Below, piece by piece: positions 57,381-57,746 of a DNA stretch of 57,746 bases. A program made the translations under genes and the position numbers. The stretch's first letter is position 1; each line of letters opens with the position of its first letter. Under the pieces are notes generated by a model. It had not been told where the DNA came from, did not search any database, and saw nothing but the letters and a program-made list of their open reading frames with translations. Source of the DNA: Salinisphaeraceae bacterium (GTDB taxonomy: Bacteria > Pseudomonadota > Gammaproteobacteria > Nevskiales > Salinisphaeraceae); the NCBI GenBank assembly GCA_002683405.1, contig NYTH01000008.1, positions 118,040 through 175,785 of the forward strand, in the 5' to 3' direction.

Positions 57381-57409
57381 TTGGCGGCAGCGCAAGTCGG
57401 ACTTAGAAT
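57381..57409 (+). promoter_or_regulatory. Sigma-70 promoter of the tRNA-Pro-like region
   Basis: TTGGCG (57381-57386), 17-nt spacer and TAGAAT (57404-57409), then a GC-rich discriminator. Transcription would run into the tRNA-Pro-like copies that begin 53 nt further on. Confidence 0.6.
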
Positions 57410-57461: not shown

Positions 57462-57554
57462 CGGTGTATAGCGCAGTCTGGTAGCGCGTCTGCTTTGGGG
57501 CGACGACCGCCCGGAGCGAGCACGGCTCGCTCAGGTCGACGCGCCCGTAGCAGG
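57462..57554 (+). pseudogene. tRNA-Pro(UGG)-like 5' half interrupted by a 49-nt hairpin, copy 1
   Basis: Nucleotides 1-37 of a tRNA-Pro are complete: acceptor CGGTGTA, T8/A9, D-arm GCGC-AGTCTGGTA-GCGC, stem TCTGC and loop TTTGGG with anticodon TGG. At the 37/38 position a 49-nt segment (57500-57548) intervenes. After it the expected A38 and GCAGG (39-43) resume. Beyond 57554 no T-arm, acceptor 3' strand or CCA follows, so this copy cannot fold as a full tRNA from what is seen. The insert contains AGCGAGC-ACG-GCTCGCT and an outer GGGCG/CGCCC pairing. Confidence 0.65.
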
Positions 57555-57652
57555 ATGCGAAGGGCCGGGGTTCTTGGCGAGGCAGGAAGCCGAGCCTAGC
57601 ACCGGACTGCTCCCGAGTGTGTCGGCGGGATGTGAGCGGAGAAGGTTTCAGA

Positions 57653-57746
57653 CGGGGTATAGCGCAGCTTGGTAGCGCGTCTGCTTTGGGGCGACGACCG
57701 CCCGGAGCGAGCACAGCTCGCTCAGGTAGGAGCGCCCGTAGCAGGA
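57653..57746 (+). tRNA. tRNA-Pro(UGG)-like 5' half with the same insert, copy 2 (cut by the right edge)
   Basis: Acceptor CGGGGTA, D-arm GCGC-AGCTTGGTA-GCGC, TCTGC and TTTGGG with anticodon TGG. The same 49-nt insert (57691-57739; 4 differences from copy 1) follows, then A38 and GCAGG. The sequence ends there, so whether a true T-arm and CCA follow is unknown. The call as a tRNA gene, rather than a second broken copy, is open. Confidence 0.35.

What the first reader, a model, noticed from the sequence alone, without database searches (positions are those of the whole stretch)
57462..57746. Two tandem tRNA-Pro(UGG)-like 5' halves, each interrupted at position 37/38 by a near-identical 49-nt hairpin
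Both copies carry a perfect tRNA-Pro 5' half down to anticodon TGG and G37. A 49-nt segment (45/49 identical) with a 7-bp GC hairpin and a closing GGGCG/CGCCC follows, then A38 and the 3' anticodon stem GCAGG. Position 37/38 is the usual site of archaeal and eukaryotic tRNA introns. Known bacterial tRNA introns are group I and far longer than 49 nt. Copy 1 has no T-arm or CCA after the junction. Possible readings: a small mobile or satellite element that targets the tRNA-Pro anticodon loop and leaves half-copies; an undescribed short intron; tRNA-half decoys or regulatory RNAs; or an assembly artefact. A tRNA-type promoter lies just upstream, in the folD neighbourhood where tRNA genes are often found.
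Basis: partly seen in the sequence, partly recalled or inferred. Interest (0 to 1): 0.82.

Follow-up and report, generated by a model that had tools for sequence, protein, structure and literature searches.

The report
Tiny self-targeting insertions in essential genes
The two odd half-tRNA copies belong to a widespread family of very small mobile DNA units that insert at one exact point inside essential bacterial genes, carry a spare gene end so that the gene still works, and hold a short stretch complementary to the insertion point, which suggests nucleic-acid-guided targeting by an enzyme not yet found.

Summary
They are the first hairpin of a three-hairpin element, E (57500-57605), in a 191-bp unit present twice; copy 2 is cut by the contig end. 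The "3' anticodon stem GCAGG" is E's second hairpin. The intact tRNA-Pro(UGG) lies on another contig that synteny places next.

Covariance models find such units in 14 of 85 genomes of the order and 11 of 369 of the class, at tRNA genes, mnmG, murG, YhhQ-like and other conserved genes. Layout: gene part ending GG | E | guide | leader | second copy of that gene part ending GG | rest of the gene. A congener's empty mnmG site shows a true insertion that brought a foreign gene start. In 13 of 30 type-1 units the guide is exactly complementary (7 nt or more) to sequence across the insertion point (16 of 832 cross pairs); all 10 named tRNA-Pro units tested also match.

Layout and insertion are well supported. 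Guide-directed insertion by an unknown trans-acting recombinase, resembling half of an IS110 bridge/seek RNA, is inference. Y1, IS110, reverse transcriptase, TnpB and resolvase families are each missing from some or all of 14 carrier genomes.

The parts
57381..57409 (+). Promoter-like site (TTGGCG-17-TAGAAT) upstream of the array
   Evidence: Consensus match; no evidence of function
57462..57499 (+). Copy 1 of the tRNA-Pro(UGG) 5' part, ending TTTGGG (orphan gene part before E)
57500..57605 (+). Element E, copy 1 (three hairpins; starts GCGA)
   Evidence: R2 match 57498-57607, 79.1 bits; alignment A2; covariation
57500..57542 (+).
57543..57565 (+). Hairpin 2 (GGA loop); contains the GCAGG that was read as a tRNA 3' stem
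57566..57605 (+). Hairpin 3 (CTTGGCGAG ... CGAGCCTAG); one mismatch in its lower stem in this copy (my reading)
57607..57614 (+). Guide CTGCTCCC, complement of GGG^AGCAG of the intact tRNA-Pro
57615..57652 (+). Leader carried by the unit
   Evidence: by position
57653..57690 (+). Copy 2 of the tRNA-Pro 5' part
57691..57746 (+). Element E, copy 2, cut by the contig end
   Evidence: 52 of 56 positions as copy 1; R1 match

Best explanation
The window shows two tandem copies of a 191-bp member of a family of minute integrative units. Each unit is E (three hairpins, about 106-120 nt in the commonest type, starting GYGA), then a guide, then a leader with a copy of the target gene's near end up to GG. 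Shown: units insert directly after GG inside a conserved gene, so that the unit-borne gene end replaces the displaced one and the gene downstream stays whole; an intact site remains, and tandem copies occur. Shown for a large part of the type-1 units: the guide is complementary to target sequence across the insertion point, including right-hand sequence that is not part of the unit. Inferred: E is transcribed from the host gene's promoter and folds as RNA; the gene part before E (same sequence as the left target) and the guide after hairpin 3 (complement of the right target plus the GG core) act as two arms of a target-reading RNA, like the target-binding half of an IS110 bridge/seek RNA. An unidentified recombinase supplied in trans would join a circular or otherwise excised unit at the GG core.
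For: Family, structure and covariation. Anchored repeat of the gene part ending GG in 34 of 82 units, 28 of 38 outside G044. Empty site: G056 against G017, 111/119 upstream and 558/600 downstream, unit-borne end only 43/60 against 54/60 for the orphan. Guide: exact match of 7 nt or more across the junction in 13 of 30 units against 16 of 832 cross pairs; 8 of 21 target groups, permutation maximum 4 in 5000; right half 14 of 30 against 32 of 828; 10 of 10 named tRNA-Pro units, nine beating all 200 shuffles and one with 2 of 200. Three different E bodies with matching guides at the same mnmG site. [quoted passage not shown]
Against: No enzyme found: Y1 8/14, IS110 8/14, RT 5/14, TnpB 0/14, resolvase 3/14 carrier genomes. 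17 of 30 type-1 units, among them tRNA-Ser(GCT) and D-loop units, have no exact 7-nt match, and the own genome's D-loop subfamily has no recognisable guide. Most G044 copies (38 of the 44 examined) show no anchored repeat. G.U pairs are rare for an RNA, 52 of 2181 cells. No transcript or transposition data. Six of the 13 guide matches are units on which the idea was formed.
Confidence: 0.5

Rival explanations
1. Units are passive: they arose rarely, spread between species by DNA uptake and ordinary homologous recombination in the conserved gene, and multiply in tandem by unequal crossing-over. E is kept for another reason, e.g. as an insulator or processing signal in front of the gene.
For: No enzyme common to carriers; the shared block at the left junction in G017 is 31 nt; tandem arrays fit unequal crossing-over.
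Against: In the own genome similar E bodies sit in many different tRNA genes, which needs movement to non-homologous places; the guide's right half knows sequence outside the unit.
Confidence: 0.2
2. A tyrosine-type integrase of unlinked islands or phages moves the units as ordinary att-site cassettes; the guide is an antisense regulator or a by-product.
For: tRNA genes and conserved gene ends are classical integration sites, leaving one partial and one complete copy (passages of PMC9897764). Tyrosine recombinases were not tested; the Xer type is nearly universal (recalled).
Against: Many unlike target sequences within one genome; units of 85-349 bp without any gene seen; guide complementarity is unexplained.
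Confidence: 0.13
3. The folded form is single-stranded DNA, moved by an HUH (Y1) transposase in the manner of IS200/IS605 or REP elements, with base pairing in DNA.
For: Hairpins with conserved mismatches, few G.U pairs, YGAR tandem-GA motif stable in DNA (recalled).
Against: No Y1 match in G044, which has most copies, nor in G061, G041, G057, G079, G033.
Confidence: 0.08
4. A short spliced or self-splicing intron in the tRNA.
For: The guide is complementary to the joined exons, as a group I internal guide with P10 would be (passages of PMC3984707); site 37/38.
Against: The gene part is duplicated and the gene is whole downstream; no Rfam intron match on E; the same element lies antisense to genes.
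Confidence: 0.03
5. Assembly artefact at a contig end.
For: The window ends inside the repeat and the first 63 nt of C17 are 17% GC.
Against: Units at the same tRNA-Pro site in independent genomes; covariation.
Confidence: 0.02

Closest known systems
IS110/IS1111 elements with bridge RNA or seekRNA
   Same: Short structured RNA-like element; a segment with the left-target sequence 5' and a top-strand complement 3', both including a core dinucleotide; target varies with the guide (passages).
   Different: No transposase gene in any unit read; PF02371 missing in 6 of 14 carriers and only a fragment in the own genome; the left arm is host gene sequence, not element; no donor-binding loop recognised; the unit carries a gene end.
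tRNA-targeting genomic islands, ICEs and prophages (tyrosine integrases)
   Same: Insert in tRNA and conserved genes, leave a partial copy and restore a complete one (passages of PMC9897764).
   Different: About 150-200 bp instead of about 9 kb and more in that paper; no integrase gene; guide; many different targets per genome.
IS200/IS605 and REP/RAYT elements
   Same: Small structured non-autonomous repeats with hairpins and a fixed short sequence before the end (recalled).
   Different: Y1 absent from 6 of 14 carriers, including the one with most copies; long gene-end repeat; guide to both sides.
Group I introns
   Same: Guide complementary to joined exons; tRNA targets (passages of PMC3984707).
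   Different: No Rfam match, gene restored at DNA level, guide near the 3' side, much shorter (size recalled).
OMEGA systems (TnpB/IscB)
   Same: Guide at the 3' end of a structured element (TnpB; recalled).
   Different: TnpB/Cas12f zinc-ribbon family in 0 of 14 carriers; gene end carried; IscB not tested.

Membership tests
IS110/IS1111 (bridge RNA or seekRNA) | DEDD/IS110 transposase encoded by the element or present in the genome | tested here: not met
   No ORF in units; PF02371 in 8 of 14 carriers, own genome only a 40-position fragment with a stop. PF01548 not tested.
[quoted passage not shown]
   Top-strand complement met in 13 of 30 and 10 of 10 tRNA-Pro units; the other arm is the host flank itself, so it matches trivially.
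IS110/IS1111 (bridge RNA or seekRNA) | Donor-binding loop / recombination through a circular junction | not tested
   No circular junction data.
IS200/IS605 or REP/RAYT (HUH Y1) | Y1 transposase available in the genome | tested here: not met
   PF01797 absent in G044, G061, G041, G057, G079, G033.
OMEGA / TnpB | TnpB nuclease | tested here: not met
   PF07282 in 0 of 14 carriers; rings in 6 of 14 control genomes.
Group II intron or other retroelement | Reverse transcriptase available | tested here: not met
   PF00078 in 5 of 14 carriers, none in the own genome.
Serine recombinase element | Resolvase-type recombinase available | tested here: not met
   PF00239 in 3 of 14 carriers, none in the own genome.
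Tyrosine-integrase island | Integrase encoded in the element | tested here: not met
   Units of 85-349 bp in 34 measured; no integrase-sized room. Integrase in trans not tested.
Group I intron | Rfam group I covariance model and splicing to a functional RNA | tested here: not met
   No intron match on E; splicing not testable here.
Any described RNA family (Rfam 15) | Match over a family's cut-off | tested here: not met
   Window end and six own-genome loci: no match on E; only tRNA families reach the cut-off.

The most novel reading that the evidence does not exclude
A new class of guided integrative element: a 150-200 bp unit without any gene of its own, whose RNA, made from the host gene's promoter, has two target-reading arms around a three-hairpin body and directs an unidentified host or trans-acting recombinase to a GG inside essential genes, while the unit supplies a new, sometimes foreign, gene end so that the insertion does no harm.
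Probability: 0.4. Interest if true: 0.95.

Novelty: categorically new. Interest (0 to 1): 0.87.

Why it matters
If true, these would be among the smallest site-specific integrative elements (from my own knowledge), with guides that differ from target to target and no gene of their own. They swap the ends of essential genes (tRNA, mnmG, murG) between lineages without killing the gene. The guide/target pairs are natural reprogramming experiments across many genes, and the unknown recombinase would be a candidate for a new guided DNA-insertion tool. They may also break assemblies, produce false tRNA halves and mislead start-codon annotation in essential genes.

Tried and rejected
Rfam on the window end and six own-genome loci: nothing on E. 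BLAST of one unit-bearing stretch (L003:150-420) against plasmids and phages: no match. One weak match, L114 at 34.7 bits. A tRNA-Pro unit pattern in viral contigs: none.

Search for the enzyme: Y1, IS110, RT, TnpB, resolvase; none is present in all 14 carriers. Some of these genomes are incomplete drafts (G065 is 79% complete), so single absences are weak; G044 (98% complete, 2 contigs) and the own genome (99%) weigh most. The RT of G044 looked promising because its domain starts about 1.3 kb after three tandem units, but it belongs to a group II intron in tRNA-Gly. An ORF between two inverted units in G044 is an IS3-type transposase by my reading of the translation, taken as a nested insertion. 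Target-primed reverse transcription and fold-back synthesis were considered on paper only and dropped: fold-back gives inverted gene ends, and reverse transcription leaves the guide without a role.

Papers: eight searches of the held library listed nothing that I recognised as describing such units; only titles and abstract starts were seen. Most subscription papers and bioRxiv preprints are not in it, so absence from print is not shown. PMC9897764, PMC11208160, PMC3984707 and PMC11187229 were seen in passages; the rest in listings.

Rows dropped: 82 of the 103 matches went into; left out were two duplicates (L155) and 19 other, mostly weaker matches, many of them the inverted partners in G044. 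From the loci I added eight. In one search I left out six own-genome type-2 units, the two L104 units, L107, one tandem copy (L093:730) and one relic (L151:1501); units whose repeat scored below 15 had already been left out (for example L179). 30 remained. Eight of the 30 were in view when I formed the guide idea and gave 6 of the 13 matches; the 22 others gave 7, two of them at mnmG, whose site was already in view. In the 21 groups the two YhhQ-like units count as two groups. L178 and L185 of the guide test and L221 and L235 appear to be the same loci. GG before E (33 of 34) is biased because the R2 seed was mostly chosen with GGG in front. Fisher values treat related units as independent and are not quoted. 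One search used shuffles of single letters as control; the tRNA anticodon stem is self-complementary, which helps any copy of its 3' strand to match.

Full report
1. The observation. The window is G000:C8:118040-175785 and its last base is the end of contig C8. Two tRNA-Pro(UGG)-like 5' parts (57462-57499, 57653-57690) are each followed by the same insert (57500-57605; 57691 to the contig end), period 191; the inserts match at 52 of 56 positions. ARAGORN finds no tRNA-Pro in the window. An intact tRNA-Pro(UGG) lies at the start of contig C17, followed by tRNA-Arg(TCT), tRNA-His and tRNA-Lys. In G123 the order is cysS and folD (both by my reading of the translations), a unit in tRNA-Pro, then tRNA-Arg(TCT), His, Lys. 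The window has cysS and folD just before the units (my reading), so C17 very probably follows C8. The first 63 nt of C17 are 17% GC, and its tRNA has two A.C mismatches in the acceptor stem (pairing by my reading), probably an error at the contig end.

2. The insert is a family. BLAST with the window end and with one copy, then a covariance model (R1), gave 16 matches at E<=1 in the own genome. They lie at or beside tRNA-Arg(CCT), tRNA-Arg(CCG), tRNA-Thr(CGT), tRNA-Ser(TGA), tRNA-Ser(GGA, two in tandem), tRNA-Phe and tRNA-Pro(CGG), two tRNA-Gly loci (tRNA by Rfam; isotype by my reading) and murG. GTAGCAGGA belongs to hairpin 2, which in other members reads e.g. GAGGCAGGAAGCCTC.

3. Structure. 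A model with three hairpins shows strong covariation. On 100 distinct sequences 95.6% of cells pair; 452 cells have changes on both sides against a mean of 108 in shuffles and 27-50 when partners are slid by 1-3 columns. That alignment was fitted to the model; the 16-sequence seed, aligned without structure, gives 62 against 18.4 in shuffles and 4-12 when slid. Hairpins 1 and 3 share a YGAR/YGAR tandem-GA motif, and hairpins 2 and 3 a GGA loop (my reading). G.U cells outnumber A.C cells 52 to 12, which favours the strand of the model; the model itself leans that way, and G.U is only 52 of 2181 cells, low for an RNA.

4. Layout. In 34 of 82 units examined the sequence before E is repeated downstream of E, ending at the same GG; outside G044 it is 28 of 38, in G044 6 of 44. 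Many G044 copies are inverted pairs between genes. So the order is: orphan gene part ending GG, E, guide, leader, gene part ending GG, rest of the gene. Where I looked, the downstream gene is whole: tRNAs by ARAGORN, proteins by Pfam. Measured units are 85-349 bp, 25 of 34 of them 145-200 (the longest include tandem pairs). Tandem copies are common. Further targets are tRNA-Leu, tRNA-Ser(GCT) and tRNA-Pro; mnmG, murG in two genomes, a PfkB kinase, Vut_1/YhhQ-like genes in two genomes and the 3' end of a class-II DAHP synthase; and mutL, 5S rRNA and rnpB by my reading of the sequence. When E lies antisense to the gene, the restored part is the gene's 3' end.

5. It is an insertion. MnmG was sought in all 85 genomes of the order. 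Of the 30 loci returned, 29 could be read at the site and 7 of these carry a unit or relic there (G017, G052, G081, G031, G033, G025, G041); G061 carries one outside that set. Congener G056 has the empty site: upstream of GG it is 111/119 identical to G017 and downstream 558/600, while the unit-borne 60 nt are 43/60 identical against 54/60 for the orphan. The unit therefore came in at GG and brought a foreign mnmG start with its own leader. In another genus G080 is empty. G031, a relic with most of E deleted, has an orphan close to G080 (50/55) and a unit-borne end that is not (42/55) but resembles that of G081 (50/55); G052 and G081 share the unit-borne allele (53/55). For G052 itself the orphan is no closer to G080 than its unit-borne end (40/54 against 42/55), so there this measure does not show foreign origin.

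6. The guide. After hairpin 3 lies a stretch complementary to the target across the insertion point, e.g. GTCGATCCGCGC for GCGCGG^ATCGAC (G025), AAAAAACCAT for ATGG^TTTTTT (G057), CTTCAACCAC for GTGG^TTGAAG (G065) and CTGCTCCC for GGG^AGCAG (window). 13 of 30 type-1 units have an exact match of at least 7 nt spanning the junction, against 16 of 832 guide-target pairs from different groups; one unit per target group, 8 of 21, permutation mean 0.67 and maximum 4 in 5000. Seven of the 13 come from the 22 units not in view when the idea was formed. The right half alone, which lies outside the unit, matches in 14 of 30 against 32 of 828. At tRNA-Pro, a scan of the collection of 84,980 species genomes for the left half plus GYGA gave 17 loci: 10 with a whole unit, one cut by the contig end, six chance matches in other sequence. 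All 10 guides match, over 10-20 nt with 1-4 mismatches; nine of ten beat all 200 shuffles, and L227 had 2 of 200 as good. They vary together with the target allele (ACCTGC, ATCTGC, GTCTGC). One of the ten, in a Desantisbacteria MAG (L220), has quite different hairpins.

7. What does not fit. 17 of 30 type-1 units, among them tRNA-Ser(GCT) and D-loop units, lack an exact 7-nt match, and the own genome's D-loop subfamily has no recognisable guide. G044 D-loop units carry a guide that pairs at most with the left TTGG (my reading), as if inserted off target.

8. Distribution. R2 at E<=1e-6: 14 of 85 genomes of the order, own included, with 41 copies in G044; 11 of 369 of the class, own included, where at most 10 candidates per genome were scored, so this is a lower bound. 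Named carriers at tRNA-Pro include Salinisphaera halophila, S. shabanensis, Natronospira sp. and several MAGs. A contig of the same length (33,487) links S. halophila to G012, so the own genome is probably in the family of Salinisphaera but in another genus.

9. Enzyme. In 14 carriers: Y1 8, IS110 8, RT 5, TnpB 0, resolvase 3. None is common to all. No longer unit with a gene was seen in the loci I read. Tyrosine recombinases, IscB and DDE transposases were not tested.

10. Mechanism. The gene part before E equals the left target, and the guide after E is the complement of the right target plus the GG core. This is the order described for the ISEc21 seekRNA (top-strand match 3' of the bottom-strand match; [quoted passage not shown] I infer that E RNA reads the target in this way for a recombinase supplied in trans. 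It works like half of a bridge RNA; it is not shown to be an IS110 element, and the transposase test for membership was not met.

11. Verdict. The finding is real and much larger than first seen. Family, layout, structure, insertion and guide complementarity are shown; transcription, guided insertion and the enzyme are inferred.

Noticed in passing
L246:3448-5944 (G044) and L247:4158-7307 (G052): Group II introns with an RT, apparently in tRNA-Gly (anticodon region by my reading in G044), each holding a whole tRNA-Gly(CCC) copy between the D1-D4 and D5 matches.
   Followed up: partly
L220, unit ending about 200 nt before the intact tRNA-Pro (Ca. Desantisbacteria MAG CG1_02_49_89): A unit, with what looks like a second one upstream, at the same tRNA-Pro site and with a matching guide but quite different hairpins, in a record labelled as another phylum; contamination of the MAG is not excluded.
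   Followed up: partly
L097, L098, L100, L102, L164, L170 and other G044 loci: In G044 many E copies form convergent inverted pairs between genes, with recurrent flanks, like a larger MITE-like repeat.
   Followed up: partly
L157:1776-3213 (G044): An IS3-type transposase (my reading of the translation) lies between two inverted E copies.
   Followed up: no
L011:149-614 and 1662-2000 (C17); also beside tRNA-Pro on C41 and C39 (L012, L007, L091): Tandem repeats of 127-130 bp (GGAGGAAATTCCGGC-type) follow tRNA genes on C17, and similar sequence lies beside the other two tRNA-Pro genes; not related to E as far as seen.
   Followed up: no
L011:1-63: First 63 nt of contig C17 are 17% GC against 61% for the next 500 nt and run into a tRNA-Pro with two acceptor mismatches: likely a chimeric contig end.
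   Followed up: partly
L109, L113, L114, L118 (IMG/VR contigs): A hairpin-3 look-alike (CTTGGTGAGCC..GGCGAACCTAG and similar) recurs behind genes in GC-rich phage contigs without hairpin 1; R2 scores only L114 weakly.
   Followed up: partly
L112:600-800 (IMG/VR contig): Several hairpin-3-like repeats lie between tRNA genes of an AT-rich phage contig (tRNAs by my reading).
   Followed up: no
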